A stretch of 64,000 nucleotides of DNA. Origin: Myxococcus stipitatus DSM 14675. GTDB lineage: Bacteria; Myxococcota; Myxococcia; Myxococcales; Myxococcaceae. Positions 23,469 to 47,379 of the stretch are shown here, piece by piece. Location of the stretch: NCBI RefSeq assembly GCF_000331735.1, contig NC_020126.1, positions 1,984,001 to 2,048,000 on the forward strand, given 5' to 3'. The first letter of the stretch is position 1. The number at the start of each line of letters is the position of its first letter. Position numbers and translations under genes: made by a program. Under the pieces are notes generated by a model. It worked only from the letters and a program-made list of their open reading frames with translations, was not told the DNA's origin and did not search any database.

Positions 23469-23589
23469 GTCGTTGCCTCCTCAGAGGGCCCGTGACGGGA
23501 CGCGGAGTGCGGCCGCAGGGCTGCTCGCGGGACGCCCCCCGGCAGGGCTTCCTGACCGGTGGCGACAGGGAACCCCGTTCCTGGAAAGA

Positions 23590-28736: not shown

Positions 28737-29033
28737 CAGTTACTCCCGGACATGCGGCGCTCCCTGGGTCCGGCCCCTCTGGTGACCCAGGCGTGACTCG
28801 GAAGCGGTCCTTGGGAGCGGATTCACCGGCGCCTGGGCGCGCTCAGGGTACGCATGGGGTCCCAGCATTCCAGTCCGGACCTGGAGGGCAGTGAGACAGG
28901 GGACACGTGGTCAGCCCTCGAGGGAGGTGAGAGCGTTTGCTGTCACACGGTGTGGGGGCACATCGACGCCGAGCGGGGTTGCACTGAACAGGTGGAGCCA
29001 CAGAGTCCAGGTCCGTCAGGAGGCGGGGCGCAC
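28737..29033. other. Divergent intergenic region
   Basis: About 300 bases between the start of the secreted trio and the endonuclease V start. It must carry both promoters. The open frame upstream of the endonuclease V ATG (from 28854) lacks a ribosome-binding site and protein character. Confidence 0.4.
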
Positions 29034-30716: not shown

Positions 30717-31691
30717 TCACCCATGCCGGGTGACGACCAGGACTCCCGTGTCGATGGCCTCGCGGATGACGGACGGAAGACTCTCCAACGTCACCTCGCT
30801 GTCCGCTCCCGCGAGACACAGCCCCGCGTCGACCACCTGGAGCGTGTTCGCATCGACGATGGAGATGAAGCGCTCCTCCATGAAGGCATACGTCACCTCC
30901 AGCTGGTTTCCGCCCAGCTGGCGATGGTTCAGCAGCCGCGCCCCCGCCCGGTGCAAGGCGGCCTCCGCTCGGGACATGTCGTCGGGCCGCGTCCTCGGTC
31001 GATGCGAGAGGTACTCTGACTCCACCCGCTCGCGAGGCTGGACGACCCGCGCCGCGTGGCGCTCGAGCTCCCGCCGGGCCACGAGCGCGCGTTGATGGGC
31101 CTCCCGCTCGCGCAGCAGCGTGTGGAGATACGCCTCCGCCTCGGCCCGCCCTCGCTCGGCGATTCCCAGCACCCGGGTGCGAGCCTCCGCGGGCACGAAC
31201 CGGATGCCCGACGCTCGCGAGGCCACCTCCAGCAGCACATAGCCGAAGGCCGCTCGCAGCGGCGCGCCCACGCCCTTCACCGAGGAGAGCGGCTGGCCCT
31301 CCTCCAGGGCACGCCGGGCCAGGTCCTCCGCCTCGCCCTCGAACTCCACACCGTCGAACAGCAGGGTGCCGTCATGCCAGCGCCGCGCGCTCACGGGCGC
31401 GAGCACGGGCGGCTGCTCCTCCGGCATCAACTCCAGGGGCTCGGCCACCGCGCCCTCGCGCACCAGCCGGGTTCCCCACAGGTGGCCTCGCACGCGAGGA
31501 AGCGTGTCCAGGCCCTCGGGTCCGGCCGGCTCACGCGCGGTGGCGTCGCGGCCTCGGAGCTCGAAGCGCCACCACCCTGGCGCAACAGGGGGCGTGACCC
31601 GGAGGCGTCGCGTGGCGGTGTCCACGGTGCCGCTGCCCAGGTATGGCAGCACCACCGACTCCGTCTTGCCGAGGAACTTCCGGTAGTCCAC
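30717..31691 (-). CDS. Unknown protein encoded between rsr and the JAMM peptidase
   Basis: 324 residues from GTG 31691, preceded by GAGGAGG at six bases. The N-terminal ~140 residues are beta-rich with conserved Trp and Pro (VAPGWWRFELRGRD, then VRGHLWGTRLV). The middle (~165-265) is an Arg/Glu-rich coiled-coil-like helix region. The C-terminal ~60 residues form a compact domain (EVTYAFMEERFISIVDANTLQVVDAGLCLAG) with the only cysteine. I do not recognise the family. Its place 34 bases downstream of rsr and 19 upstream of the JAMM gene makes it a probable partner of both, perhaps an adaptor or a diverged ligase component. Confidence 0.65.
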   Translation of the reverse strand: MDYRKFLGKTESVVLPYLGSGTVDTATRRLRVTPPVAPGWWRFELRGRDATAREPAGPEGLDTLPRVRGHLWGTRLVREGAVAEPLELMPEEQPPVLAPVSARRWHDGTLLFDGVEFEGEAEDLARRALEEGQPLSSVKGVGAPLRAAFGYVLLEVASRASGIRFVPAEARTRVLGIAERGRAEAEAYLHTLLREREAHQRALVARRELERHAARVVQPRERVESEYLSHRPRTRPDDMSRAEAALHRAGARLLNHRQLGGNQLEVTYAFMEERFISIVDANTLQVVDAGLCLAGADSEVTLESLPSVIREAIDTGVLVVTRHG

Positions 31692-31725: not shown

Positions 31726-33489
31726 TCACGCCACCTTCAGCAGCGGCGTGCGCATCACCCGCTCCACCCAGCCGGACTGGCTGGCGCCGGGAAGCGTCGG
31801 CGCATCCATCAGCGCCTTGAGCACCCGAGGGACCTGGTAGGGGTCCGAGAACTGGTCCACGTTGACCTCGCTGAAGGGCACGCGCAGCTGGCTCGAGCAC
31901 GTGCGGACCGTGCTTCCACGGGCCCCCGCGACACTCACCAGCAACGCCAGCGCCGCCACCGAGTAGCCGCAGTCACGGAAGACACGGGCGAACTGGTCAC
32001 CCGCCTCACCCGCCTCGTCGCCCACCACGATGACCACCAGCTTCGCCCCCTCCGGCACCTTCACGCCGCTGCGGTGCAGCGCGAGCACGCCGGCCGCATG
32101 CGCCGTGCCTCCCGACGCCTTCAGCCCCGCGAGCATGTGCTGGACCGCCGTGCGGTTGGACGCCTTGGGCTTGAGGACGGTGCCCGTCGTGTCGAACGCC
32201 GCGATGTGCAGCTTCTCCATCGGGAAGCCCGCGAGGATGCGCGCGAGCGCCTCCTTCGAGTTCTCGATGGCCCCCTCCATGGAGCCCGACTTGTCGATGA
32301 GGAACATCACTCGCACGTCGGTCTCCGCCGTCGCCTCCTCCACCGCCTTGCGGGCGGCGTTGTCGCTGGCCTCCTCGAGCTTCTGGCGCAGCACGTCGCT
32401 GCGCACGTTCTTCGCGATGTTCAACGCCCGCTGGTCCGTCGCCGTCTGGATGGCCTTCTCCCAGCGCGTGCGGACCGTGGGCTCCGCCAGCAGGCCCAGC
32501 TCCTCGAGCGTGGGCGTCATCAGCCGCAAGTCGCGGTCCGACAGCGAGGGCAGGAGCGCCGCCATGATGGCCGGAGTCATCCCCAGGTCCTGAGGCAGTC
32601 GTCCCACGACCTCCTTGTAGGAGAGCCGCTCGTGCTCGATCCACTCGCAGATCTCCGCCTCCGACAGCCCGTCGAAGCGCTCGCGCTTGACCAGCGTCAG
32701 CCCGTTGAGGCCCACCGTGCGGTGCCCGCTCTCGGCCTGCTTCTGCTTCCAGCCGAGCACCTCGAAGAAGCCCTGCGCGCGCGGCTTGTACCCCGCCTTG
32801 CGAGCCAGCTTCTTCAGCGTCTCCTTGTAGCCCGCCTTCACGAGGCCCTGGAGCATCGACACGTTGGCCTCACGCGCCGCGAGCCAGCGGGCCGCCACGC
32901 GCTTCCAGCGGCCCAGGGGCGGCTTGCGCGACGCCGGGTCACCGAAGCCCGCCTCGCGGTTGAGGCGAGCAATCTCCGGCTGCTCGAGCAGCTCCGCGAC
33001 GCGCAGCACCGCCTTGGGCGTGAGCATGCGCGTGGACTTGCGCTCGTAGTGCAGCACCATGGCCTCGCCGATGGCGCGCCAGTCGTCGTCGTGGAACGCG
33101 ACCTCGCCGCCGTCACCCTTCACGGGCAGGCCGGCGTGGCTCTGCACCAGCATCAGGGCGCACGTGGCCACCTTCAGGTCACGCCAGTCCGTCTGCGTCA
33201 GCGCGTACGACGCGAAGTGCGCCATCAGCACCGAGTTGAGCTGGTAGATGTCCAGGAGCTGCCGGTAGAGCTTCACGGCCGCGGGCACGAAGAGGCCGGG
33301 CTTCACCGGCTTGCCGACCGTGCGCTGCGCCGGCGTGGCGTAGGCGGCGGCGACCCAGGTGCCATTCACATCCAGGCCCGGCCGGTTGTGCCACAGATGC
33401 GCGGAGCCGCTGAGCACCAGGTCCAGCAGTCGCTCCGCGGGGCCTCGCTGCGTCTCGGGAATCAGGGTGGTGTTCTGGGGCGTCGACAT
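31726..33489 (-). CDS. rsr: Ro60-like TROVE/vWA protein (Rsr)
   Basis: 587 residues from the ATG at 33489, preceded by AAGGGGG. The N-terminal ~385 residues are helical repeats consistent with a TROVE/HEAT ring (LKVATCALMLVQSHAG, then YKEVVGRLPQDLGMTPAIMAALLPSLSD). The C-terminal von Willebrand A domain carries a full MIDAS: DKSGSM at 399-404, a Thr in GGTAHAAG, and an Asp in VVGDEAG. Ro60 orthologues are ring-shaped RNA-binding proteins that bind misfolded RNA and Y RNAs and can work with exonucleases. The call is strengthened by a Y-RNA-like element ending 150 bases upstream and another beyond the next gene. An unrelated vWA scaffold is the alternative. Confidence 0.75.
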   Translation of the reverse strand: MSTPQNTTLIPETQRGPAERLLDLVLSGSAHLWHNRPGLDVNGTWVAAAYATPAQRTVGKPVKPGLFVPAAVKLYRQLLDIYQLNSVLMAHFASYALTQTDWRDLKVATCALMLVQSHAGLPVKGDGGEVAFHDDDWRAIGEAMVLHYERKSTRMLTPKAVLRVAELLEQPEIARLNREAGFGDPASRKPPLGRWKRVAARWLAAREANVSMLQGLVKAGYKETLKKLARKAGYKPRAQGFFEVLGWKQKQAESGHRTVGLNGLTLVKRERFDGLSEAEICEWIEHERLSYKEVVGRLPQDLGMTPAIMAALLPSLSDRDLRLMTPTLEELGLLAEPTVRTRWEKAIQTATDQRALNIAKNVRSDVLRQKLEEASDNAARKAVEEATAETDVRVMFLIDKSGSMEGAIENSKEALARILAGFPMEKLHIAAFDTTGTVLKPKASNRTAVQHMLAGLKASGGTAHAAGVLALHRSGVKVPEGAKLVVIVVGDEAGEAGDQFARVFRDCGYSVAALALLVSVAGARGSTVRTCSSQLRVPFSEVNVDQFSDPYQVPRVLKALMDAPTLPGASQSGWVERVMRTPLLKVA

Positions 33490-33639: not shown

Positions 33640-33767
33640 AAAAAATGCGCCCGAGTGACGAGGCCGATGTTGCTTGGATTAACGGTCCAGTGTTCTGCCG
33701 ATTGAACTACGGGACCTGACGGTCCCGGCGGGAGTCGAACCCGCATCTCTCAGGCGTGTCTGGCCCC
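33640..33767 (-). ncRNA. Y-RNA-like ncRNA 1: permuted tRNA-Asn mimic
   Basis: Minus-strand order: 5' box GCCAGACACGCC; T arm 33744-33728 (GCGGG, loop TTCGACT, CCCGC); 3' acceptor strand CGGGACC; tetraloop GUCA; 5' acceptor strand GGUCCCG (perfect 7-bp acceptor); D arm with GG in the loop; anticodon arm with loop CCGUUAA (anticodon GUU, but U33 is C); then the 3' motif ACTCGGGCGC. The outer flanks pair as CGCCUGAG (33756-33749) with CUCGGGCG (33655-33648), 8 bp including one G-U. A run of six T on this strand (33645-33640) follows directly, a plausible 3' end. The tRNA is opened between variable region and T stem, so it cannot be processed as a normal tRNA. It is located between the phosphatase gene and rsr on the same strand. 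Confidence 0.75.
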
Positions 33768-33824
33768 GTCGGCCGGGCGCGAATCCGTGGGATTCGAGGC
33801 GGTGACTTCAGCGGACGCGGACGT

Positions 33825-34532
33825 CTAGGAGTAGACGCACACGTCGCCGTGAATCGGGAACTTCGCCACGTCCTTGCCGCCCCGGTAGGTCTTCCGTGCG
33901 GGGACGGAGACCAGCTCCCAGGTCGGGAGCACCACCGCGGTCAATGAGCGGCCGTACACGCAGCCGGTGTCGATGCCCACCGCGTACTCGGTGACGAGGG
34001 GCTTGTCGAAGACGGTGTGCCCGAAGATGACCCGCTCCGGCCCTTGCCAGTAGTGGGTCCAGAACTTCCAGTCCGCCGGTGCCTTGGAGGGCCAGTAGCT
34101 CTTCTTCGTCGGTGGCTGGATGCACTGCGCATGGAGCAGGTGGTACGGGTCCTGCGCCTCGACGGGGCGGCCGGGCATCATGCCGGCGTGCACGACGATG
34201 GCGTTGTGCTCCGGCAGCCGGAGGTAGTGGGGCAGCCGGGCCATCCACTCGAAGTGCTCGGGCTCCAGCACCTGACGGGTCTCCAGGTGGTCCGGAGTGA
34301 GGCGCTCCGCGGCGCGGTGGCGCTGCTGGAGCTGGGTCTCCTCGTGGTTGCCGAGGACGGCCTCGTGCCGCATGGCCAGCTCCACGCACTCGCGCCGCTT
34401 CGGGCCCCGGTCGACCAGGTCTCCGGCGAAGATGACGCGGTCGCTGGAGGTGGCGCCCACCTTGGCGAGCAGCTCCAGGGCCTCGTCATGGCAGCCATGG
34501 AGGTCTCCGATGACGATGGTGCGGGGGGACAT
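33825..34532 (-). CDS. Calcineurin-like metallophosphatase, Pnkp/PrpE-like
   Basis: 235 residues with all metallophosphoesterase motifs: GDLHG (9-13), GDLVDRGP (about 36-43), GNHEE (about 61-65), HAGM (about 115), GHTVF (about 171). The order and size match the group that includes the phosphatase domain of bacterial Pnkp (polynucleotide 2',3'-phosphatase) and PrpE/ApaH-type diadenosine hydrolases. AAGGAA precedes the ATG. It lies between two Y-RNA-like elements and upstream of rsr on the same strand, so removal of RNA-end phosphates is an attractive inference. A 6-bp hairpin overlaps its stop codon. Confidence 0.8.
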   Translation of the reverse strand: MSPRTIVIGDLHGCHDEALELLAKVGATSSDRVIFAGDLVDRGPKRRECVELAMRHEAVLGNHEETQLQQRHRAAERLTPDHLETRQVLEPEHFEWMARLPHYLRLPEHNAIVVHAGMMPGRPVEAQDPYHLLHAQCIQPPTKKSYWPSKAPADWKFWTHYWQGPERVIFGHTVFDKPLVTEYAVGIDTGCVYGRSLTAVVLPTWELVSVPARKTYRGGKDVAKFPIHGDVCVYS

Positions 34533-34546
34533 GACACGGTTCCTTG

Positions 34547-34665
34547 GAAAGAAGATGAGCGCCCGAGTTGGGAGGCCGGAGGGCTGAATTATCAGTTCAG
34601 TGCCGGACCACCGGCGGAACCCCCGGGAGGGGGGCTTGGAATCGAACCAAGGCTTGTGGGGCCTT
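34547..34665 (-). ncRNA. Y-RNA-like ncRNA 2: permuted tRNA-Ile mimic
   Basis: Same architecture as element 1. 5' box GGCCCCACAAGCC (34663-34651); T arm 34651-34635 with perfect 5-bp stem CTTGG/CCAAG and loop TTCGATT; a C-run then loop then GGGGG giving five acceptor-like G-C pairs; D arm GCCG-GUGGUC-CGGC; anticodon arm 34600-34584 with stem CUGAA/UUCAG and loop CUGAUAA, identical to a tRNA-Ile(GAU) loop including U33. The conserved 3' motif AACTCGGGCGC is at 34569-34559. The acceptor helix is imperfect (five of seven pairs). It ends about 15-25 bases before the phosphatase start codon, so it may be processed from that mRNA leader. Confidence 0.7.
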
Positions 34666-34955
34666 CCTGCCGGACGCTCGAAAGCAGTGCGGCCAGGGAC
34701 GCGGACTCCCGGGTTTCCTGACGGGCCATTCCCGGCTCCCCCGCCCGCCCTCTTCTATAGGGTGGTTTGTCAGGAAACCGGCGCCGACCGGGTCGGGGCT
34801 CCTGGAGGCCTTGCTGTCCGGTTGTCCGGGCGGCCATGGCCTCCTGCTCCACTCGGAGGCTGCCTGCGGATGCCAACGTGGTACCTTGCCGCGCCACATC
34901 CCTGTAATTCCATCTCCCGGGGCGGTTCTCCGGGCACAGCCCTCAGGTCCTTCCG

Positions 34956-35627
34956 GTGTACGAGCAGCTCTCGGATGACGAATTGTTCGCGGAGGTCGTG
35001 CGACGCCGCGCCACGGGTGAGCCCATTGGAGGCCCACTCGGTACGTTGGTTCAACGATGGGGCCGGCCTGCCCGGTACGTCATCAGCAAGATTCAGTCGA
35101 GCTACGGCCGAGGGTCCCCCGCGGACGCGGACGAGCTCTACCAAGACGCGGTCGGCAAGTTCATCGACCGTGGGCTGGACCAGTTTCGGGGTGTCTCCGA
35201 GCAGATGCCGGGCCGGAGTGCGTCTCCCAAGACGTTCTTCCTGCGCATCGTCAAGCACGTGGCCATCGACTTCTACCGGCGGCACCGCGAAGAGCTCGCG
35301 GCGCCTCCGTCAGACCCCGATGACGCCATGGAAGAGCCGCCTTCCGAGCGGGCTCGCGCGATGGAGATGGGCCGAAGGACCGAGGAGCGGGCGGACGCCC
35401 AGGAGCTGTACTGGGCCGCGTTCGCACGACTCCAGCAGGAGCACCCCAAGGAAGCCTCGGCATGGGAGCTGTACCACCACGAGGACGTAGAGGACCACGA
35501 GGAATGCGCCCGTCGCCTGAACATCACCGTGGTCAACTCGTACAAGCGCGTCAGCCGCGCCCAGGCCTACTTGAAGCTCTACCTGCTGGATCTCCAGCGC
35601 GAGTCACCACGCGGGGAGGAAGCGTGA
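34956..35627 (+). CDS. ECF-like sigma factor
   Basis: 223 residues from GTG 34956. Region 2-like segment DELYQDAVGKFIDRGLDQF, then TFFLRIVKHVAIDFYRRHREE (promoter-melting helix), and a C-terminal region 4-like helix-turn-helix (EECARRLNITVVNSYKRVSRAQAYLK). The linker is unusually long and acidic. It is 46 bases upstream of a protein with two anti-sigma-type zinc motifs, its probable partner. The ribosome-binding site is weak. Confidence 0.75.
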   Translation: MYEQLSDDELFAEVVRRRATGEPIGGPLGTLVQRWGRPARYVISKIQSSYGRGSPADADELYQDAVGKFIDRGLDQFRGVSEQMPGRSASPKTFFLRIVKHVAIDFYRRHREELAAPPSDPDDAMEEPPSERARAMEMGRRTEERADAQELYWAAFARLQQEHPKEASAWELYHHEDVEDHEECARRLNITVVNSYKRVSRAQAYLKLYLLDLQRESPRGEEA

Positions 35628-35673
35628 GCCTCCTTCCCGGCAGCACCTCGGGGTTTTCAGGAGGAATGAACTC

Positions 35674-36861
35674 ATGAACATCGATGCCATGTCTCGCTAC
35701 GCCACCCGTCGCGCTCAGCTCTCCGAGGCGGCGACCCCTCCAGGAGCCGTCCTCGAAGCAGCGGGGGACCTGTTGAGGCGGGCGACCCGGATGGGGACCG
35801 AAGGTGTGGAGGCGGCCCTGCGGGGCCTCGGTCGAACGGCGGTCGAGACATGGCTTCAAGCGCAGAAACCCCAGGCTCTCCAGCCGGTGCTGTTGAGAGC
35901 GGCGGAAGAAGCGATGGAAGTGGTGCTGGACGGCGGGGAGGAGGCCGAGGTGTGGCGGGCCTCCGCGCTGGACGGACTGGCGGCCCGGGACCGTGCCGCC
36001 TCCGCGGCGGTGGCCCTGGCCGCCTGGGAAGGTCTCCACGGTTCCCTCCAAGGTGACGCGGCCCGGAGTCGCGACGCATTTCTGGCGGCGCTCGGGAGCC
36101 TGGATTCGTTGCTTCGCCCACGGGCGCGCTGGTTCATCCCGCTCAATCCGCAGCGCCGGCAGGAGCTGGACCTCCTCGAGCCCGCCGAGCAGGAGACGTC
36201 CTGGTGGTTCTCGTCGCGAGCGGGCTGCGATGACCTGGTGGCCACGTGGACGGGCGGGCCGCAGACGTCTTCTTCGCATCTCCAGGGCTGTGTCGAGTGC
36301 CGGGCGGACATCGCGGATGCCGCGCCCGTGGACGCTCCACCCCGCCGCCACCTCACGCAGGATGACCTGTGGCGCTTCGACATGGGCCTGATGTCCACCG
36401 ATGAGCGCGAGCGCGTGGACGCGCACACCGCGCGCTGTGGCGAGTGCGCCCAGGCGGTGCTGGCCTTGGGCGAAGGTGATGATGCGATGGAGGAGGCCCT
36501 GGAGATGGAGGAGGGCGAGGCGGGCGTGACGCGTGCCGCGCGTTCTTCCCGCGCCCCGGTGTCGCAGCGCCCGTCCGCGGCGCGCCATCCGGAGTCGCGC
36601 GAGGTGTTGGAGGAGCGCCGGGACTTTCGCGTGGTGCTCGTTCGCGAGCGTCAGCGTGTTCGCCTGGTGGTGCAGCCCCTGTCCGGCCGGACGGTGACGG
36701 CCGCCGTGTTCCTCAGTCCGGGCCGCCCTTCGCTCAAGCCCACGTCGGGCCCGGAGGGGCTCGCGTTCGACCTCTCGTCCGCGTCCTCCACGGGCGCGCG
36801 CTCCGCTCACCTCACGGTGCAGGCTGGAACCGAGACGCTGGAGCGGGACTTCGCCTTCTGA
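35674..36861 (+). CDS. Putative anti-sigma/zinc-finger partner protein
   Basis: 395 residues after AGGAGGAATGAACTC. Two zf-HC2-like H-x3-C-x2-C motifs are present: HLQGCVEC (about 205) and HTARCGEC (about 250). The second follows LTQDDLWRFDMGLMSTDERERVDAH, the classic anti-sigma ZAS pattern. N-terminal ~190 residues are helical. The C-terminal ~100 residues form a beta-rich domain resembling effector-sensing parts of myxobacterial sigma partners. No transmembrane helix is evident, so it may act as a cytoplasmic sensor binding the upstream sigma factor. Confidence 0.65.
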   Translation: MNIDAMSRYATRRAQLSEAATPPGAVLEAAGDLLRRATRMGTEGVEAALRGLGRTAVETWLQAQKPQALQPVLLRAAEEAMEVVLDGGEEAEVWRASALDGLAARDRAASAAVALAAWEGLHGSLQGDAARSRDAFLAALGSLDSLLRPRARWFIPLNPQRRQELDLLEPAEQETSWWFSSRAGCDDLVATWTGGPQTSSSHLQGCVECRADIADAAPVDAPPRRHLTQDDLWRFDMGLMSTDERERVDAHTARCGECAQAVLALGEGDDAMEEALEMEEGEAGVTRAARSSRAPVSQRPSAARHPESREVLEERRDFRVVLVRERQRVRLVVQPLSGRTVTAAVFLSPGRPSLKPTSGPEGLAFDLSSASSTGARSAHLTVQAGTETLERDFAF

Positions 36862-36878
36862 AGTCACCTCGCGGGACC

Positions 36879-36905
36879 GGGCCCTCGCGCCGAGCGCGGG
36901 GCCCC
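36879..36905. terminator. Convergent hairpin
   Basis: GGGCCC-CGCGC around a CGA loop with GCGCG-GGCCC (one unpaired base per arm) lies between the stops of the two facing operons. Probably terminates both. Confidence 0.5.
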
Positions 36906-36928
36906 TGGGTCTTCCGCGAGTGCGGCGT

Positions 36929-38095
36929 CTAGTCCTTGGGCGTGAGCGCGCGCTGCGTCTCGAGCGCCTCGCGGCTGAGCACGGGCGGCCGCGGGATGGG
37001 GAAGCTGCCCGGAGGGACGCTGGCGCGGAAGCCGTTGGCCAGGAAGCTCAGGACGAGCTGCGCGGGCGGCGGCCGGGTTCCCAAGGCGGCGCCACAGAGG
37101 TCGACCCGGTCCATGACGCGCGGACCGTCGTGGCGCTCGTACCGGTTGCAACTGCTGTCCACCGGGGCGCTCCGGTCCCGCTTCAGCTCGCGCGTCAGCC
37201 GGCCCCACTTCATGGTGAGCTCCCCGGGCGTGATGCTGATGGCGACGGGGTCGCTTCCCCAGACACCTTCGATGATGGTCCGCGCGCCGCCCGCCCTGAC
37301 CTTCAGCTCCAACGGGCGCTGGCCGAAGGTGCCCGTCACCTCGATGCCGTGCTCGTAGACCTCTTCGGAGAGGATGCTCACCCAGACGCCATCGGCCCGC
37401 TGGGTGTAGGGCTTGTCGGCCGCGACGCGCCCGTTGTTGAACCAGACATCGCCCACGCGGCCGATCGGCACCTGGCTGTTCTTGGACACGGCCGTTGCTT
37501 CATCGAGGCCGGAGGGGCCCGTGCTGGCGACGAGGGGCCGTGAGGCGAGCAGGTCCGTCACCGCGACGGAGGCGTCCACGACGTCGAAGCGCACGCCATC
37601 CAGCCACGCCTGGCCGGTGCCGCTCATGATGAGGCCCGCCATGATGGTGGTGGCCTCCTTGGGAACATCCAGCACGACTTCGTAGCGCTTGCACCCGCGC
37701 GAGCCGACGAGCGCGCGCGACTGCATGTTGTCGAAGGCGAGGGGCTGCTTCGGGTCGGGCCCTTCCACCCGCATCCAGAGCCCCGCCCAGCCATTCACGT
37801 CCTTGACGCGCATGGCGGCGGAGAAGCGCAGCCGCTTGCCGCGGTAGTCCTGCGCGCCGAAGGCCTGCATGAAGGTGCCGTAGCCGGCCTCGTCCGGCGA
37901 CAGCGAGCGGAGGTAGGCGCTGCGGCTGCCCTCGCAGGGCGAGGCGGTGTCCACGCCCGCCTCGTAGCGCTTGGGCGCGCTCTCGGTGACGTACCAGCCC
38001 ACCGGCAGCTTCGGGGCGCCGCCAGGCGACTGCGCCGCGGCCACCGGGGCGGCCAGGGCGAGCAGCAGGGCGGCGAGTCTCTTCCGGAAGTCCAT
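36929..38095 (-). CDS. Secreted hypothetical protein in a sigma-factor operon
   Basis: 388 residues from the ATG at 38095, which starts a signal peptide (MDFRKRLAALLLALAAPVAAAQ). The frame upstream has no protein character. The mature part is a beta-sandwich-like domain (GWYVTESAPKRYEAGVD, then KRLRFSAAMRVKDVNGWAGLWMRVEG) similar to carbohydrate-binding-type modules fused to regulators in other bacteria. A second beta domain follows. It is 11 bases downstream of the anti-sigma gene, so it is likely a regulated or sensory periplasmic partner. Confidence 0.65.
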   Translation of the reverse strand: MDFRKRLAALLLALAAPVAAAQSPGGAPKLPVGWYVTESAPKRYEAGVDTASPCEGSRSAYLRSLSPDEAGYGTFMQAFGAQDYRGKRLRFSAAMRVKDVNGWAGLWMRVEGPDPKQPLAFDNMQSRALVGSRGCKRYEVVLDVPKEATTIMAGLIMSGTGQAWLDGVRFDVVDASVAVTDLLASRPLVASTGPSGLDEATAVSKNSQVPIGRVGDVWFNNGRVAADKPYTQRADGVWVSILSEEVYEHGIEVTGTFGQRPLELKVRAGGARTIIEGVWGSDPVAISITPGELTMKWGRLTRELKRDRSAPVDSSCNRYERHDGPRVMDRVDLCGAALGTRPPPAQLVLSFLANGFRASVPPGSFPIPRPPVLSREALETQRALTPKD

Positions 38096-38106
38096 GGGGG
38101 GCGTCC

Positions 38107-38652
38107 TCACAGCGACACGGGCCCGCGGGCATTGAACGCGCCCTCGGGGAGGCCGGTATGGGCCTCGTAACGGGGAACCTCGGCGATGCCTCCGGGGTTC
38201 ATGACCAGATACCCTCGCTCTGTTGCCTTCCGTGTGCAGTCGTCCTGCGTGGCCAGGTCGGGGCAGGCCACGACGTGGGTGGGTGCATCGTCCTGGTCCA
38301 GCTCCAGCGCCACGGAAGGCGCCGTCGCATCCAGGGGCTTCGTGGGAGCGCTCCCCCGCGGGTTCTTGCTGGGGAGCATCACCAGCGCGAGGGAGGCCGC
38401 GATGGCCGCGATGGCCGCGCTCGTCATCGTCTTGCGCCCGCTCCATGCGGCGGGACGCAGGACGCGCTCCCTCGGGGGGATGCTGCTGGCGACTTCGGCG
38501 AGCTGCTCCGACAGCATCGCCTCTTCCTGAAGCAGCACGGCGCAAGGCTCACACTCCAGGGTGTGGGCCTCCAATGCCGCCGCCTTCTCCGGGGCCAAGG
38601 CGCCCAGGATGTATTGCTCCGCGGAGTCGCGGGTCAGGTGGGGCTTAAGCAT
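38107..38652 (-). CDS. Membrane anti-sigma factor with zinc-finger
   Basis: 181 residues after GAGGAGGAGACCC. ZAS-type motif HTLECEPC near residue 30 for sigma binding. One transmembrane helix is at about 76-92 (TSAAIAAIAASLALVML). A periplasmic domain of about 85 residues has a Cys pair (VACPDLATQDDC). Its start overlaps the sigma factor's end by eight bases, the usual coupling of ECF sigma and anti-sigma genes. Confidence 0.8.
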   Translation of the reverse strand: MLKPHLTRDSAEQYILGALAPEKAAALEAHTLECEPCAVLLQEEAMLSEQLAEVASSIPPRERVLRPAAWSGRKTMTSAAIAAIAASLALVMLPSKNPRGSAPTKPLDATAPSVALELDQDDAPTHVVACPDLATQDDCTRKATERGYLVMNPGGIAEVPRYEAHTGLPEGAFNARGPVSL

Positions 38653-39289
38653 GGGTCTCCTCCTCGAGCGCGGTCCGCAGCTTCTTGCGCACCTCGCACA
38701 GGATCTGCCGCACGCGTTGGACGGACAGTCCGACCCGGGCGGCGACTTCGGCATGGGGTAGCTCCTGGCCATCACAGGCCAGGAGAAACACGCTCCGCGC
38801 GCTCGGCGACACCTGGGCGAGCGCGGCGTGGGCGCGGGACAACTGCTCTTCGGAAAGCAATCGACGCTCGGCGGACACGGAAGGGTCCACGGGGTGCTGC
38901 CGCTCGGGCAGCTCCTCCACCGCACCGGAGATGGACTCGCGCCGGACGCGGCGGGCGTCGTCCGCGGCCAGGAAGGCCGCCTGGGTGAGGGCGAGGTTGG
39001 GCAGGCGCAGCTCCGTCAGCAGTCCGCGTTGCTGTTGTTGGATGAGCCGCGCCCACGTCTCCTGGGCCAGCTCATGCGCCCGGTCCACCCGGACGCCTCG
39101 GGCCAGGAGCGATACCACGACGCGGCGGTGGTGGCGCGCAACCAGTGCGTCCCACGCCGCCCGGTCGCCGGCCAAGGCCTTGCGCGCCAGGGCGTCCTCG
39201 TCGGACCCCCGCTCCGCCTCTTGCGGCTCTTCGGCATCCCTCGACAGTCGAAGCGTCGTCATCCGCAGGCCCTGCACGGCTGCACTCAT
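38645..39289 (-). CDS. ECF-type sigma factor
   Basis: 214 residues from ATG 39289. Region 2 runs around AAWDALVARHHRRVVVSLLARGVRVDRAHELAQETWARLIQQ in broken segments, and region 4 around QVSPSARSVFLLACDGQELPHAEVAARVGLSVQRVRQILCEVRKKL. It heads a three-gene operon with a membrane anti-sigma factor and a secreted protein, a typical envelope-stress module. Confidence 0.85.
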   Translation of the reverse strand: MSAAVQGLRMTTLRLSRDAEEPQEAERGSDEDALARKALAGDRAAWDALVARHHRRVVVSLLARGVRVDRAHELAQETWARLIQQQQRGLLTELRLPNLALTQAAFLAADDARRVRRESISGAVEELPERQHPVDPSVSAERRLLSEEQLSRAHAALAQVSPSARSVFLLACDGQELPHAEVAARVGLSVQRVRQILCEVRKKLRTALEEETHA

Positions 39290-39412
39290 GCCGTCTTCCC
39301 GTCGCTCTGAATCGTAGCCGGGGTGCGGCCGCTCCCCGGTGTCCCGGTAACGTGTGTCCGTGGCGGACATATCGCCGGAGACTCCGAAGATGTGCGGAGG
39401 GGTAGGCAAGGG

Positions 39413-39901
39413 TCAGTTCGTTGCGGGGCTTTCGCCTGAGGCCCAGGGGAGGTTGGAGAGTCGGACCACACCCTGGCAGCGCCCACAGACGCGGTCCTGG
39501 GCATCGTAGACGCGGGCGGTGGCGAAGAGGAGGGTGAGGCCCTGGCTGTCGATTTCGGACTCCACGCGGAGGCGATCACCGGTGACGGGGCGCTCGAAGC
39601 TCATGGAGAGCTGGACGGTGGCGCAGCGCCGGGTGGGGTCCACCAGGGCGCCGCTGGTGCCGATGGCGAGGTCGAAGAGGGCGGCGAGGATGCCCCCGTT
39701 GACGGCCAGGGCGCTGCCCACGCCTCCCCGGTGCTCGGGGCGCAGTTCGGGGAGGGTGACGACGACCTTGTTGCGGCCCTCCGGGAAGGAGAGCCGGGCG
39801 CCGAAGTGACGCAGCGTGAGGCTCTGGTTGAAGAGCTCTGCGTAGCGGTCCAGGGCGGCCTGGGTGGGGCGCGTGGGAGGACCCGAGGAGGAGTCGGACA
39901 T
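39413..39901 (-). CDS. PaaI-type hotdog thioesterase
   Basis: 162 residues from ATG 39901. The hotdog core shows HRGGVGSALAVNGGILAALFDLAIGTSG, equivalent to the HGG/NGG...D helix of PaaI/YbgC-like acyl-CoA thioesterases, then VQLSMSFERPVTGDRLRVESEI. It probably hydrolyses an acyl- or aryl-CoA in the cytoplasm. Divergent from the helicase gene. Confidence 0.8.
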   Translation of the reverse strand: MSDSSSGPPTRPTQAALDRYAELFNQSLTLRHFGARLSFPEGRNKVVVTLPELRPEHRGGVGSALAVNGGILAALFDLAIGTSGALVDPTRRCATVQLSMSFERPVTGDRLRVESEIDSQGLTLLFATARVYDAQDRVCGRCQGVVRLSNLPWASGESPATN

Positions 39902-40026
39902 GGCGTTGCGCCCTATATAGCCGAGCGCGAAAAGCCAGGGGACCGGGCGACCGGACGGGGATGGTGGAAGGACGCCCACCCGGCGGCGAAAGACGTTAGA
40001 AGCAGAGGTTCCCTCGAGAGTCTCCC

Positions 40027-42336
40027 GTGAACGCCCACGAATCCGCCCTCCTCGAAGACCTGAATCCCCCCCAGCGTGAGGCCGTGCTGCACATCGGCGG
40101 TCCGCTGCTCGTCCTGTCGGGCGCCGGCAGCGGCAAGACGCGCGTCATCACCCGCCGGGTGGCGTACCTGGTGAAGGTCCACGAGGTCTTCCCGTGGCGC
40201 ATCCTGGCCGTGACGTTCACCAACAAGGCCGCGAGGGAGATGCGCGAGCGCCTGGTGCAGTTGCTCGGGCGCCAGGCGAATGACCTGGTGGTGAGCACGT
40301 TCCACTCGGCGGCGGCCATGATCCTGCGCCGCGAGGCGGAGCACGTGGGGCTCACCCGCTCGTTCGTCATCTACGACGACGGGGACCAGCTCAACGTGGT
40401 GAAGCGGGCCATGCGGGAGGCGGGCCTGGAGCAGTCCATGCAGCCCCGCGACATCCTGAGCCGCATCGACCAGGAGAAGAACGCGGCGCGCCTCCCCGAG
40501 GACATGGAGGTGGAGCCCGGTGACGAGCGCGGCATGCTGGTGCGCAAGGTGTATCACGCGTACCAGGAGCGCCTGCGCGCGGCCAACGCCGTGGACTTCG
40601 GCGACCTGCTGCTCCTCCTGGTGTCGCTGTTCCGCAAGCGGCCGGAGGTGTTGGAGAACTACCGGCGCCGCTTCCACCACGTGCTGGTGGACGAGTTCCA
40701 GGACACCAACCCCGTGCAGTACGCGCTCCTGAAGCAGCTGGCCCCGCCGCCGTCGGCGAACCTCGTCGTGGTGGGCGACGACGACCAGTCCATCTACCGC
40801 TGGCGCGGCGCGGACGTGGACAACATCCTCAACTTCCCGCGCCAGTACCCCGGCGCGAAGGTGGTCAAGCTCGAGCAGAACTACCGCTCGGACCGCAACA
40901 TCCTGGATGCCGCCTACGAGGTCATCCGGAAGAACACGCGCCGGATGGACAAGAAGCTGTGGTCCGACCGGCCCGCGGGCCAGACGCTGCAGCTGATGCT
41001 CAACCGCGACGAGCGGATGGAGGCGCAGGAGGTGGCGAGGCAGATTCTCGCCCTCCAGCGCGAGGGCTTCATCAAGTTCTCCAGCATGGCGGTCTTCTAC
41101 CGGGTGAACGCGCAGAGCCGCGTGCTGGAAGAGGGGCTGCGGCTGGCGCGAGTCCCCTACACGCTGGTGAGCGGACGCAGCTTCTACGACCGCGCGGAAG
41201 TGCGCGACGCCTCCGCGTATCTGCGGTTGATGGTGAATCCGCGCTCGGACGCGGACCTCTTGCGCATCATCAACACGCCGGCGCGAGGCATTGGCGACAC
41301 CACGGTGGAGCGGCTGACGGACCACGCCAACACCCAGGCGAAGAGCCTGTTCGAGGTGCTCTCCGAGCCCGAGCGAGTCCCCGCGCTGAACAGCACTGCG
41401 GTGAAGCGGCTGCGCACGTTCCACGGGCTGCTGAAGACGCTGCACGACTTCGCCCAGGGCACGACGGACGCGGCCAGCGCGGTGGACGAGATGCTTCGCG
41501 AGACGAAGCTCGTCGAGACGCTGGTCGCGGAAGGCAGCGACGAGTCGAACACGCGCGCGGAGAACCTTCGCGAGTTCCTGGGCGCGGCGCAGGAGTTCGA
41601 CTTGAACCGCGCGGCGGCGGCGGTGGCCGCGGCGTCGCAGCCCCGTGAGGAGGTCCCCCCGGAGGTGGATGCCGCTCCGTTGTCGGCGGACACCCCGCCG
41701 CTTCAGGCCTTCCTCGAGCAGATCTCCCTGGTCGGCGACGCGGACGCCGAAGTGGGGGAGGGCCGCGTGGCGCTGATGACCCTCCACGCCGCCAAGGGCT
41801 TGGAGTTCGACGCGGTGTTCCTCACGGGCCTGGAGGACGGCGTCTTCCCGCACTCGCGAGCGCTCAAGGGGGAGGACCCGGACAACGGCGAGGAGATGGC
41901 CGAGGAGCGACGCCTCTGCTACGTGGGCTTCACGCGCGCGCGCAAGCGGCTCTTCGTGAGCCTGGCGCAGTGCCGCTCGCTGTTCGGTGAGCTGCGCTAC
42001 AACCCGCCCAGCCGCTTCCTGCGGGACGTGCCTCCCGCGTTGTTCGGCATCAGCGAGCAGGACGTGCCGGAGCCTCCCCGCGCCGTGGCGACGCCGCCGC
42101 GCAAGCGCACGTGGGATGACGACGACGGGCCTCGCATCGACCGCTCCTACTCCCAGACGTCGGACATGGACTCGGTGAGCGGAGACGTGCGCGGCATGCG
42201 CGTGCGTCACGAGCAGTTCGGCGTGGGCCGCATCGTCGCCACGGATGGGACGGGACCCAACGCCAAGGTGACGGTGGAGTTCGGAGGCGCCGTGGGCCTC
42301 AAGCGCGTCATCGCCCGCTTCTTGATGCCGGGCTAG
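40027..42336 (+). CDS. uvrD: UvrD/PcrA-like superfamily 1 DNA helicase
   Basis: 769 residues from GTG 40027. Motif I GAGSGKTR (about 37-44), Ia TFTNKAAREMRER, II VDEFQDTNPVQ (about 222), III GDDDQSIYRWRGA, IV NYRSDRNIL, V MTLHAAKGLEFDAVFLTG (about 590) and VI CYVGFTRARKRL (about 635) are all present. A C-terminal Tudor-like tail (EQFGVGRIVATDG...VEFGGAVGLKRV) matches PcrA-type RNA-polymerase-binding ends. ATP-dependent 3'-5' unwinding in repair and replication is expected. Whether it is the sole copy cannot be told. Confidence 0.93.
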   Translation: MNAHESALLEDLNPPQREAVLHIGGPLLVLSGAGSGKTRVITRRVAYLVKVHEVFPWRILAVTFTNKAAREMRERLVQLLGRQANDLVVSTFHSAAAMILRREAEHVGLTRSFVIYDDGDQLNVVKRAMREAGLEQSMQPRDILSRIDQEKNAARLPEDMEVEPGDERGMLVRKVYHAYQERLRAANAVDFGDLLLLLVSLFRKRPEVLENYRRRFHHVLVDEFQDTNPVQYALLKQLAPPPSANLVVVGDDDQSIYRWRGADVDNILNFPRQYPGAKVVKLEQNYRSDRNILDAAYEVIRKNTRRMDKKLWSDRPAGQTLQLMLNRDERMEAQEVARQILALQREGFIKFSSMAVFYRVNAQSRVLEEGLRLARVPYTLVSGRSFYDRAEVRDASAYLRLMVNPRSDADLLRIINTPARGIGDTTVERLTDHANTQAKSLFEVLSEPERVPALNSTAVKRLRTFHGLLKTLHDFAQGTTDAASAVDEMLRETKLVETLVAEGSDESNTRAENLREFLGAAQEFDLNRAAAAVAAASQPREEVPPEVDAAPLSADTPPLQAFLEQISLVGDADAEVGEGRVALMTLHAAKGLEFDAVFLTGLEDGVFPHSRALKGEDPDNGEEMAEERRLCYVGFTRARKRLFVSLAQCRSLFGELRYNPPSRFLRDVPPALFGISEQDVPEPPRAVATPPRKRTWDDDDGPRIDRSYSQTSDMDSVSGDVRGMRVRHEQFGVGRIVATDGTGPNAKVTVEFGGAVGLKRVIARFLMPG

Positions 42337-42344
42337 CGACGCAG

Positions 42345-42487
42345 GGGAAAGGGAGTCCGCACCCGAGTGAGAAAGCCAGCAGGGAACCTGCCAGATTCAT
42401 GTCTGGTGCCTTTGACCACTCGGCCATCCCTCCACAGTGGCGGAGGGAGCTGGATTCGAACCAGCGAAGTTGGGGCGTGTAGGGCTT
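42345..42487 (-). ncRNA. Y-RNA-like ncRNA 3: permuted tRNA-Ser(UGA) mimic with encoded CCA
   Basis: Minus-strand order: 5' box GCCCTACACGCC (42485-42474); T arm 42465-42449 with perfect GCUGG/CCAGC and loop UUCGAAU; 3' acceptor UCCCUCC; then GCCA (discriminator G plus CCA); linker CUGU; 5' acceptor GGAGGGA (perfect 7-bp match); class II D arm with GG; anticodon arm 42406-42391 (CCAGA/UCUGG, six-base loop CAUGAA holding UGA); a long variable arm GCAGG-UUC-CCUGC; then 3' motif CTCACTCGGGTGC. Every element of a class II serine tRNA is present but circularly permuted. The outer helix CGCCC/GGGUG keeps the register of element 1, with G-U replacing G-C. It lies downstream of the beta-propeller lipoprotein gene, convergent with uvrD. 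Confidence 0.75.
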
Positions 42488-42574
42488 CTTCTGCCGGGTG
42501 CGGATGCGGGAAATGACGGCGTGCGCTGAAGAAGCCTGACGGCGTGGCTCGCGAAGCCCAGGCTCGAGGAGCCG

Positions 42575-45764: not shown

Positions 45765-45954
45765 TCCGCCGGCGAGCGCGCTGAGAAAGGCGCCCGGCGT
45801 CGTCAGGCCCGGGTGTGCCTGTCGTCCCTGCGCGTCGAGGACGGGCTTCACGCCGTCCGGCGACCGCGGCTGCTGACCCAAGGTCCACCATCTCTTCCGC
45901 CACGTCCCCCCGGGACGCTCGCATGCGAGCACCGGGGCATTCCTGAGCTGGGTC

Positions 45955-47379
45955 ATGCAGCCGAAACTGAATCGGCTCCTGCGGGCGCTTGCCCGTGAGG
46001 GGCTCGAGGTGACCTATGACGGTCGCCTCTACTCCGTGCGCCTCCAGGCCGACGCGAACGCGCCGCCCGCCGAGGTGCTTCTTCCCCCGGACCTGCCCGT
46101 CGAGGGCAAGGCCTTCCAACAACTCGCGCACCTCGCGGCCCTGCGGCACCCCAGCGGTGGCGAGGTCCTCCGTGTGCGCGCCACGCCCGACTTCCACCCT
46201 GGTGACTCCGGTGTGGCCATCGGCTCGGTGCTCCACACGCGAGGGCTCGTCGTCCCTGGCGCCGTGGGCACCGACATCAACTGTGGCATGCGCCTGCACG
46301 TCGCCGACCTGTCCGTCGACGACTTCCTGGCTCGACGTGATGCCTTCGTCGAGCGCATGAAGGGCCATTACTTCTTCGGAACGCGGGACGTGGCCATGTC
46401 CTCGCGCGCTTCCACGGCGCTGCTGCGCGACGGCATCCCGGGCTGGCTCCTGGAGACGCTGGATGCTCCCCTGGGGTGTGCTCGCGCCGCGGACTTGAAG
46501 CAGCTCGACGCGGAGGTGGAGCGCATCCACCTGGGCGGCGTGCTGCGAGGCAACCCGGACTGGGCTCCCGAGGCACTCACCCGTGAAGGCGTGGTGCGTG
46601 ACGCGGGCCTGGCCACCATCGGCGGAGGCAATCACTTCGTCGAGGTGCAGCGTGTGGAGGCCGTGGAGGACCGGGCGCGAGCCTGGGCCTGGGGTGTTCG
46701 CGAAGGGCAGCTCGCCTTCATGATTCACTCCGGCAGTCGGGACGTGGGCAAGCACGTGGGCGTGGCGTGGAAGGACAGGGCTCGCAAGGCCTGGCCTCAG
46801 GGGGCCCCGTTCCCCGACAGCGGCATCCTTCCCCTGGCGGACGAGACCCTCGTCTCCCAGTACCTGGAGGCCGAGGCCACCGCCGCCAACTACGCCTTCC
46901 TCAACCGCCTGCTGCTCGCGGAACTCTTGCGCCAGACGCTGCGCGAGCTGTTCGGCGACGTGGAGGCGCCCCTCGTCTACGACGTGCCCCACAACATCAC
47001 CCTCCCGCACGAGGGCGGCTTCCTGGCGCGCAAGGGGGCGTGCCCGGCGGCCGCGGAGCAGCCCGTCATCATCCCGGGCTCCATGGGCGCCACCTCCTTC
47101 CTCATGGTGGGATGTGGCGACGCGCGGGCGCTGGAGTCCGCGTCCCATGGCGCGGGTCGGGCGCGCTCCCGCTTCTCCCTGGCCCGCGCGGGTGCGGACC
47201 AGAGCGAGGCGGCGCTGGGCTTGAAGGGCGTGGACTGCATCTCCCTGCGCGAGGAGCGCCGGGTGGAGGAGGCCCCCGCCGCCTACAAGCCCATCCGCCC
47301 GGTGGTGGACTCGCAGGTGGAGGCCGGCATCGTGCGCGAGGTGGCTCGGCTGTCCCCGCTGCTCACCTTCAAGGCCTGA
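45955..47379 (+). CDS. rtcB: RtcB RNA ligase
   Basis: 474 residues. Metal and guanylylation motifs are complete: TDINCG (106-111), GGGNHF (223-228), IHSGSR (257-262), PHNI (345-348), PGSMG (374-378), and HGAGR (398-402) with the His that takes GMP. RtcB joins 2',3'-cyclic phosphate or 3'-phosphate RNA ends to 5'-OH ends, repairing cleaved tRNA. In several bacteria rtcB is next to rsr and Y RNA genes; here it is 12 kb from rsr and 3.5 kb from Y-RNA-like element 3. No rtcA or archease was seen nearby. The start is the ATG at 45955; the sequence aligns from its first residues. Confidence 0.95.
   Translation: MQPKLNRLLRALAREGLEVTYDGRLYSVRLQADANAPPAEVLLPPDLPVEGKAFQQLAHLAALRHPSGGEVLRVRATPDFHPGDSGVAIGSVLHTRGLVVPGAVGTDINCGMRLHVADLSVDDFLARRDAFVERMKGHYFFGTRDVAMSSRASTALLRDGIPGWLLETLDAPLGCARAADLKQLDAEVERIHLGGVLRGNPDWAPEALTREGVVRDAGLATIGGGNHFVEVQRVEAVEDRARAWAWGVREGQLAFMIHSGSRDVGKHVGVAWKDRARKAWPQGAPFPDSGILPLADETLVSQYLEAEATAANYAFLNRLLLAELLRQTLRELFGDVEAPLVYDVPHNITLPHEGGFLARKGACPAAAEQPVIIPGSMGATSFLMVGCGDARALESASHGAGRARSRFSLARAGADQSEAALGLKGVDCISLREERRVEEAPAAYKPIRPVVDSQVEAGIVREVARLSPLLTFKA

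What the first reader, a model, noticed from the sequence alone, without database searches (positions are those of the whole stretch)
33640..42487. Three circularly permuted tRNA mimics near a Ro60-like gene: a Y RNA family
Three minus-strand elements (33640-33767, 34547-34665, 42345-42487) each contain a complete or near-complete tRNA set of arms in the order T arm, acceptor 3' strand, 4-8 base loop, acceptor 5' strand, D arm, anticodon arm. Each is flanked by the same boxes (GCCNNACAMGCC before, ACTCGGGYGC after). They resemble three different tRNAs (Asn GUU, Ile GAU, Ser UGA). Known bacterial Y RNAs lie near Ro60 genes and include tRNA-like domains. Here the mimicry extends to anticodon arms and, in one case, a long variable arm and CCA. 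I infer each arose from a different tRNA captured into a common Y RNA frame. Several mimics of different identity per locus would be unusual.
Basis: partly seen in the sequence, partly recalled or inferred. Interest (0 to 1): 0.95.

Follow-up and report, generated by a model that had tools for sequence, protein, structure and literature searches.

The report
Permuted tRNA-mimic Y RNA family
Beside a gene for a protein predicted to fold like Ro60, this myxobacterium carries a family of likely RNA genes predicted to fold as rearranged transfer RNAs with fast-changing anticodon loops, which it likely switches on together with RNA-repair genes to protect its real transfer RNAs.

Summary
The elements are real. 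A covariance model built from copy A and its orthologues finds relatives in 74 of 96 Myxococcaceae genomes, almost exactly those that carry the adjacent Ro60-fold gene (73 shared, 21 with neither). That permuted order is already in Rfam's YrlA model. New is a fourth, closed anticodon hairpin, supported by two-sided covariation. The triplets change rapidly between species, so the labels Asn, Ile and Ser are not conserved, and separate capture of three tRNAs is not supported. Most copies share an ECF-type promoter, GTCAGG-N15-17-CGTC. The same motif precedes the divergent ECF-type sigma gene, RtcB ligase genes and accessory tRNA arrays. I infer a tRNA-damage regulon in which Ro60-bound RNAs act as decoys for enzymes that attack anticodon loops. 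Transcription, Ro60 binding and decoy action are untested.

The parts
33647..33780 (-). Y RNA copy A (next to the Ro60-fold gene). Outer stem 33774-33780/33647-33653, T arm 33728-33744, acceptor 33721-33727/33710-33716 closed by GTCA, D arm 33692-33707, anticodon arm about 33673-33690, loop CCGTTAA
   Evidence: orthologues and pair counts
34559..34677 (-). Y RNA copy B (upstream of the phosphatase). T arm 34635-34651, anticodon arm 34584-34600, loop CTGATAA
   Evidence: orthologues and pair counts
42359..42501 (-). Y RNA copy C (stand-alone). T arm 42449-42465, anticodon arm 42391-42406 with 6-nt loop CATGAA, followed by a short variable-arm-like hairpin
   Evidence: orthologues and pair counts
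31726..33489 (-). Ro60-fold protein, 587 aa, VWA domain at 394-491
   Evidence: present in 74 of 96 family genomes
33825..34532 (-). Metallophosphatase between B and A, partly similar to the bacterial Pnkp phosphatase domain and PrpE/ApaH
   Evidence: all NCBIfam matches below their cut-offs; found in 30 of 30 fetched rsr loci
34956..35627 (+). ECF-type sigma factor, divergent from copy B; candidate regulator
   Evidence: Pfam Sigma70_r2; TIGR02937 40.5 bits, just under its cut-off 42.9; 86 of 96 family genomes
34698..34722 (-). ECF-type promoter GTCAGG-N15-CGTC of the B-phosphatase-A-rsr gene row
42515..42540 (-). ECF-type promoter GTCAGG-N16-CGTC of copy C
34769..34794 (+). Same motif (one mismatch, GGTC) on the strand of the sigma gene, upstream of it
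   Evidence: found in 19 of 20 loci, 16 exact, 3 with one mismatch
45802..45826 (+). Same motif upstream of RtcB
   Evidence: conserved in 30 of 30 fetched RtcB orthologues, 17 exact, 13 with one mismatch
45955..47379 (+). RtcB RNA ligase
   Evidence: PF01139, E 1.9e-89

Best explanation
The three elements are likely genes of a multi-copy YrlA-type Y RNA family whose RNAs are predicted to fold into a two-stem handle, likely bound by the neighbouring Ro60-fold protein, and a permuted tRNA-like domain with its own closed anticodon hairpin that would act as a decoy for enzymes attacking tRNA anticodon loops. Shown by sequence: the frame, the arm order, covariation of the stems including the anticodon stem, near-perfect co-occurrence with the Ro60-fold gene, and a shared ECF-type promoter motif that also precedes the sigma gene, RtcB ligases and accessory tRNA arrays. 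Inferred: the sigma factor (P0121) turns the set on when tRNAs are damaged or depleted; RtcB reseals cut tRNAs, accessory arrays replace lost ones, and the Ro60-bound mimics occupy or titrate the attacking nuclease (or hand it to decay). Fast turnover of the triplet inside a conserved loop would reflect changing attackers. My estimates: about 0.95 for Y RNA family identity, about 0.8 for the shared regulon, about 0.45 for the decoy role; the confidence below is for the whole chain.
For: Covariance model hits: 5 strong copies in the genome, 74 of 96 family genomes at E 0.001, 1 of the 99 other genomes of the phylum searched, at E 1e-4. Co-occurrence with the Ro60-fold gene 73/1/1/21, Fisher P 6e-19. 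Standard pairs: A 99.3%, B 92.1%, C-type 96.4%, X-type 97.5%. Anticodon stem: two-sided changes at 5 of 5 pairs in X, 2 of 5 in C, 1 of 5 in B, none in A. Loop: on the rsr tree, positions 33 and 38 of B change 1 and 0 times while 34-37 change 4, 6, 4, 6 times; the triplet of A changes 9, 3, 7 times against a four-fold-site mean of 1.87. Promoter motif (scanned in 110 nt upstream, spacing 14-18): exact in 77 of 111 collected copies and in 15 of 17 B copies, 0 of 22 A copies that lie behind the phosphatase gene, 1.3% of 5000 random windows; on the sigma strand in 19 of 20 loci; upstream of RtcB in 30 of 30 fetched orthologues; 7 of 44 genome-wide matches lie within 320 nt upstream of the 80 tRNA/Y RNA genes, 0.04 expected (two of the seven are Y RNAs B and C, which helped define the motif). 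PMC7790460 (passages read) describes activation of the Salmonella rsr-yrl-rtcBA operon along with tRNA fragments and suggests that YrlA may competitively inhibit the anticodon nuclease.
Against: No transcript, binding or nuclease data. Rfam YrlA scores 39.7 bits for A against a gathering score of 69. Pfam TROVE does not match the protein even at E 10. In A the acceptor-closing loop evolves nearly as fast as the triplet (9,3,3,2,6,6) and the acceptor stem and loop of B are fast too (means 2.9 and 2.7 against 4.7), so relaxed constraint could explain the triplets without an arms race. A's own anticodon stem shows no covariation. A copies often lack U33, C copies often have 6-nt loops. 28 of 152 copies are read as open-stem, without an anticodon hairpin. 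In the Salmonella study fragments of YrlA were not detected, so it was not a substrate of that nuclease (PMC7790460). Copies D and E in this genome have the promoter only with one mismatch. The sigma gene also occurs in 12 of 22 genomes without the Ro60-fold gene, and RtcB orthologues in only 54 of 96. 34 of the 44 exact promoter matches in the genome have no link that I know of.
Confidence: 0.5

Rival explanations
1. The same Y RNAs work as YrlA is thought to: the tRNA-like domain tethers or gates an effector (PNPase or another tRNA-binding enzyme) on Ro60 through its D, T and acceptor arms. The anticodon hairpin is only a structural cap that replaced the open stem, and its triplet drifts neutrally.
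For: Outer stems, T arm and D stem are among the most conserved parts; open-stem copies coexist with hairpin copies (28 against 107 of 152); the acceptor loop varies nearly as much as the triplet in A. The tether model is described for D. radiodurans and YrlA (PMC8394870, passages).
Against: Positions 33 and 38 are kept while 34-37 turn over in B, the pattern of an anticodon loop rather than of a free cap; triplets change faster than four-fold sites (P 0.002 in A, 0.005 in B); the promoter links the RNAs to tRNA supply and repair rather than to RNA decay.
Confidence: 0.33
2. They are permuted tRNA genes: the transcript is circularised and processed so that working tRNAs with new anticodons are made, with RtcB as ligase.
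For: Full set of arms; RtcB nearby with the same promoter motif; CCA-like letters in the acceptor loop of C.
Against: The acceptor loop has 8 nt or fewer in 101 of 107 closed-hairpin copies and 6 or fewer in 85 (A: GTCA), little room for a leader and a CCA end; both ends are held in two conserved stems; 11 of 88 seven-nt loops carry stop-reading or A34 triplets, which bacterial tRNAs rarely use (recalled), and 6-nt loops occur (14 of 107).
Confidence: 0.03
3. One reading: three separate tRNAs (Asn, Ile, Ser) were captured into one Y RNA frame.
For: C scores closer to type-II tRNAs (Tyr 66/79, Ser 64/81) than the median unrelated tRNA pair, within the background range.
Against: A and B are not closer to Asn or Ile than background; triplets differ between close species; copy A of L036 and L037 still has an open YrlA-type stem CCAG/CUGG where others have the hairpin CTGGA/TCCAG, which points to conversion in place.
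Confidence: 0.06
4. The variable loop is an antisense or guide element that pairs with other RNAs.
For: Hypervariable 3-5 nt in a presented loop.
Against: Few free bases; no target was sought here.
Confidence: 0.06
5. Chance or decayed tandem tRNA genes, which also bring T arm and acceptor strand next to the following tRNA's D and anticodon arms.
For: Real tandem tRNA arrays do match the model weakly (39.4 bits and less).
Against: The five copies score 50.6-144.7 bits, the two acceptor strands pair with each other and covary, and outer stems and promoter are shared.
Confidence: 0.01

Closest known systems
YrlA (Rfam RF02553), bacterial Y RNA with tRNA-like domain
   Same: Outer base-paired stem, then T arm, acceptor arm closed by a loop, D arm; gene near an rsr/Ro60 gene and RNA-repair genes; sub-threshold match over the full model, 39.7 bits, up to 49.1 bits as a partial match for an open-stem copy.
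   Different: In the Rfam consensus the stem corresponding to the anticodon stem encloses the domain and there is no anticodon loop. Here most copies carry a closed hairpin with a 6-8 nt loop (107 of 152), the outer frame differs, and dispersed paralogues exist.
Salmonella rsr-yrlBA-rtcBA RNA-repair operon
   Same: Ro60-like protein, tRNA-like Y RNA and RtcB under common control, activated along with tRNA fragments (PMC7790460 and PMC8394870, passages).
   Different: There the regulator is RtcR with sigma-54; here an ECF-type promoter motif and a divergent ECF-type sigma gene, dispersed Y RNA genes, and accessory tRNA arrays in the predicted regulon.
Circularly permuted tRNA genes of algae and archaea (recalled; PMC3978253 seen in a search listing only)
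   Same: 3' part of the tRNA precedes the 5' part with a linker between the acceptor strands.
   Different: Linker mostly too short for end processing, ends locked in stems, some triplets not usable; function as tRNA unlikely.
Ro60 (1yvp, 9nfa) and Deinococcus radiodurans Rsr (2nvo)
   Different: 12-16% sequence identity in these alignments; Pfam TROVE does not recognise it.

Membership tests
YrlA-type Y RNA | T arm, closed acceptor arm, D arm in this order inside a long terminal stem | tested here: met
YrlA-type Y RNA | Rfam RF02553 gathering score (69 bits) | tested here: not met
   39.7 bits in the window; 0 of 195 genomes of the phylum over the cut-off
YrlA-type Y RNA | Anticodon-equivalent stem is the enclosing stem, without an anticodon loop | tested here: not met
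   Not met in A, B and C (closed hairpin); met in copy E (TCTCG/CGAGA) and 27 other copies read as open-stem
YrlA-type Y RNA | Gene next to a Ro60/Rsr gene | tested here: met
   A lies between phosphatase and the Ro60-fold gene; co-occurrence in 73 of 75 genomes
YrlA-type Y RNA | RNA bound by Ro60/Rsr | not testable with these tools
   Needs immunoprecipitation
YrlA-type Y RNA | Substrate of tRNA-modifying enzymes (DusA, TruB) | not testable with these tools
   Reported for YrlA (PMC8394870, passages)
Ro60/Rsr protein | Helical-repeat ring plus VWA domain | tested here: met
   Predicted model only (pLDDT 77, pTM 0.52); Foldseek and VIA matches spanning residues 4-585
Ro60/Rsr protein | Pfam TROVE model | tested here: not met
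   No match at E up to 10
Permuted tRNA gene | Linker between acceptor strands long enough for leader and CCA end | tested here: not met
   8 nt or fewer in 101 of 107 closed-hairpin copies
Permuted tRNA gene | Conserved, usable anticodon | tested here: not met
   31 distinct triplets in 88 seven-nt loops, 11 of the 88 stop-reading or A34
ECF-type regulon | Sigma gene preceded by the promoter it is proposed to read | tested here: met
   Motif on the sigma strand in 19 of 20 loci, 16 exact; the loci end before the sigma gene, whose place is taken
ECF-type regulon | NCBIfam ECF superfamily model TIGR02937 over cut-off | tested here: not met
   40.5 against 42.9 bits; Pfam Sigma70_r2 is over its cut-off, 34.3 against 24

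The most novel reading that the evidence does not exclude
Myxococcaceae run a dedicated ECF-sigma tRNA-emergency regulon: RtcB ligases reseal cut tRNAs, accessory tRNA arrays replace them, and a family of Ro60-bound, permuted tRNA decoys with complete anticodon arms soaks up anticodon-loop nucleases, their triplets diversifying in an arms race with those nucleases.
Probability: 0.3. Interest if true: 0.93.

Novelty: new variant of a known kind. Interest (0 to 1): 0.8.

Why it matters
What the tRNA-like domain of bacterial Y RNAs is for is an open question. Here the mimicry goes further, to a full cloverleaf with an anticodon arm, in many paralogues and species, and is tied by promoter motif to RNA ligases and spare tRNAs. 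That makes the question testable in a genetically tractable genus: vary or delete the loop and ask what stops working. A predicted ECF regulon joining Ro60, RtcB and accessory tRNA arrays would also be a second, sigma-54-independent way of wiring an RNA-repair response.

Tried and rejected
Rejected: chance matches and decayed tandem tRNAs (covariation, shared outer frame); working permuted tRNAs (linker mostly too short, some unusable triplets); separate capture of Asn, Ile and Ser tRNAs (triplets of orthologues). A sigma-54 promoter upstream of B was considered and dropped (spacing wrong, by eye); the ECF-type motif was then seen. An automatic hairpin scan picked wrong helices and was replaced; 15 of 152 sequences stayed undecided, 2 had no readable T arm, and three of the 107 hairpin rows (copy A of L028, L029, L030) were read with a doubtful hairpin (CCGTT/AACGG or AATGG). 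Pfam on 20 proteins flanking copies in 11 loci gave no common partner (peptidases, dehydrogenases, ChaN and others); the one phosphatase belongs to a B copy. Sequence searches of the PDB with the Ro60-fold protein found VWA proteins only. Whether other phyla have Y RNAs with closed anticodon hairpins was not searched. Of the YrlA-like hits outside the frame family I read some by eye: L209, L210 and L212 have candidate enclosing stems and no hairpin, L226 and L227 I could not resolve, L235 is a plain tRNA array, L208 was not printed. Literature: the listings (2 of 2 papers; 20 of 93; 20 of 129; 20 of 173; 12 of 74; 8 of 22; 12 of 27) showed no paper on Y RNAs of myxobacteria or on Y RNAs with a closed anticodon arm; this covers open-licence PMC only, and the unlisted papers were not seen. 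Chen 2014, Wang 2018 and the Sim and Wolin reviews were not held; what I say of YrlA rests on Rfam, on passages of other papers or on recall.

Full report
What is there. The window lies in a complete 10.35 Mb genome (G000:C1:1984001-2048000); the closest named relatives of its Ro60-fold protein are from Myxococcus. The three minus-strand elements exist as described: T arm, acceptor 3' strand, short loop, acceptor 5' strand, D arm, anticodon arm. The outermost pairs GCGCCCG/CGGGCGC in A, GCGTCCG/CGGGCGC in B and GCACCCG/CGGGTGC in C. The second pairs, for example, GACGGGGCC/GGCCTCGTC in A. Between them and the T arm lies a conserved ACAMGC. Energies beat most shuffles (z -3.48, -2.92, -2.10).

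Family. A covariance model from 25 rsr-adjacent copies, 24 distinct (R1), finds five strong copies in the genome: A, B, C and two more at 5120762 (D) and 8649325 (E). True tandem tRNA arrays, the natural false positives, reach at most 39.4 bits. In the family, 74 of 96 genomes match at E 0.001. The Ro60-fold gene is in 74 of 96. By my comparison of the two tables 73 have both, G093 has only the gene, G008 only a marginal RNA match (E 7.2e-4), 21 neither (Fisher P 6e-19). In the phylum at E 1e-4 the model matches 73 of the 96 family genomes and one of the 99 others searched.

Structure. Pair counts on plain MAFFT alignments, with structures that I drew from one row each: A-type 99.3% standard pairs with 8 pairs changed on both sides; B-type 92.1% and 12 pairs; C-type 96.4% and 10 pairs; X-type, a dispersed group, 97.5% and 17 pairs. 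Shuffles and slid partners fall well below, except the number of further pair types in B (82 of 500 shuffles as high) and C (61 of 500). The anticodon stem covaries: innermost pair AU, UA or CG in B (17 of 17 paired), two pairs with two-sided changes in C, all five in X. In A it hardly varies and shows none. Of 152 distinct sequences my parser closed-hairpin, 28 open-stem in the manner of YrlA, 15 undecided, 2 unreadable; three of the 107 are doubtful. Copy E of this genome is open-stem. In some genomes the two kinds sit in tandem. Copy A of L036 and L037 has an open stem CCAG/CUGG where other species have the hairpin CTGGA-N7-TCCAG. I read this as conversion of one strand of the old enclosing stem into a hairpin.

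The loop. Among 88 seven-nt loops there are 61 different loops and 31 different triplets; U33 is kept in 64, and 11 triplets would read stops or begin with A. On the rsr tree, loop positions 32-38 of B change 4, 1, 4, 6, 4, 6, 0 times (four-fold sites of rsr: mean 1.53), and those of A change 0, 6, 9, 3, 7, 2, 3 times (mean 1.87). Triplet means exceed most random sets of three four-fold sites (P 0.002 and 0.005). Two cautions: the acceptor-closing loop is nearly as fast in A (9, 3, 3, 2, 6, 6) and the acceptor arm is fast in B (means 2.9 and 2.7 against 4.7), and four-fold sites in a GC-rich genome are constrained by codon bias. So the triplet is free to change, and possibly pushed, but an arms race is not proven. 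It follows that 'Asn, Ile, Ser' are transient labels. Compared with 75 distinct tRNAs of the genome, A and B show no special kinship; C leans to type-II tRNAs, within the range of unrelated pairs.

Regulation. Upstream of the copies I found a conserved ECF-like motif, GTCAGG-N15-17-CGTC: exact in 77 of 111 upstream regions of collected copies plus 7 with GTCAG, in 15 of 17 B copies (the other 2 with one mismatch), exact in 0 of 22 A copies (these lie behind the phosphatase gene), and in 1.3% of 5000 random windows. The window's own B is in both sets, and the 111 include second members of tandem pairs and operon-internal copies. D and E have it with one mismatch. A sigma gene stands divergent to B (34956-35627); it matches Sigma70_r2 over and the ECF model just under cut-off. 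The same motif lies on the sigma strand in 19 of 20 loci, 16 exact, as expected for an autoregulated sigma factor. It precedes the window's RtcB in 30 of 30 fetched orthologues (of 54 genomes with one), 17 exactly. In the whole genome the exact motif occurs 44 times (140 for the reversed control). Seven lie within 320 nt upstream of the 80 tRNA or Y RNA genes, 0.04 expected; two of these are Y RNAs that helped define the motif. Two further matches stand before other RtcB genes. That leaves 34 without a link known to me. Accessory tRNA arrays share a leader of about 300 nt that begins with this motif or a CGTA form, has a 51-52 codon ORF in four of five and ends in a terminator-like hairpin. 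The leader occurs in 29 of 96 genomes; of 20 fetched copies 19 carry the motif, and of the 19 outside this genome 18 have tRNA genes in the locus.

Mechanism. RtcB reseals RNAs with 2',3'-cyclic phosphate ends (recalled), and the Salmonella rsr-yrl-rtcBA operon is activated along with tRNA fragments; its authors propose that YrlA might inhibit an anticodon nuclease, and note that YrlA itself was not cut (PMC7790460, passages). Inference here: the ECF regulon answers tRNA loss; RtcB repairs, accessory arrays replace, and Ro60-held mimics decoy. The closed anticodon arm is what a decoy for an anticodon-loop nuclease would need, and the loop's turnover would fit. The main rival keeps the family and regulon but lets the domain act as an effector tether with a neutral cap.

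Verdict. A real, conserved variant of YrlA-type Y RNAs, for which the named searches listed no earlier report, in a predicted regulon of tRNA repair and supply. Family and covariation are well supported; the regulon is well supported by sequence; transcription, Ro60 binding and the decoy role are untested.

Noticed in passing
L243:164-470 (-), L244, L246, L239, L240 (genome 1884269, 1920906, 1896246, 499084, 510823): Accessory tRNA arrays (up to 16 tRNA genes on one strand of a 3.3-kb locus, L307) share a leader of about 300 nt: ECF-type promoter motif, ribosome-binding site, ORF of 51-52 codons in four of five, terminator-like hairpin, then the array. Looks like transcription attenuation of spare tRNAs; found in 29 of 96 family genomes.
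   Followed up: partly
window 23531-23556 (-): An exact copy of the promoter motif upstream of a small gene (23220-23468) and a gene whose start resembles ThiF/E1 proteins by eye (22630-23211); possible further regulon members.
   Followed up: no
genome 350149 (+) and 1569446 (-): Two of the four other RtcB genes also stand directly behind the promoter motif; the genome has five RtcB genes in all.
   Followed up: partly
L035:3282-3357 (-): A 76-nt copy of the frame that keeps only a hairpin with loop CTTTCAC and lacks T, acceptor and D arms.
   Followed up: no
G040:C29:18957-20720 and G043:C27:54450-56213: Second Ro60-fold paralogues with tandem Y RNAs just upstream.
   Followed up: no
L019:1387-1456, L018:1266-1336: Part of copy A scores as an ordinary tRNA in Rfam (30.8 and 29.2 bits, gathering 29), so such genes may be misannotated as tRNAs.
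   Followed up: partly
window 30717-31691 (-): Gene directly downstream of the Ro60-fold gene without a significant Pfam match, possibly in the same operon.
   Followed up: no
window 28854-29735 (+): Endonuclease V gene (PF04493) in the same neighbourhood.
   Followed up: no
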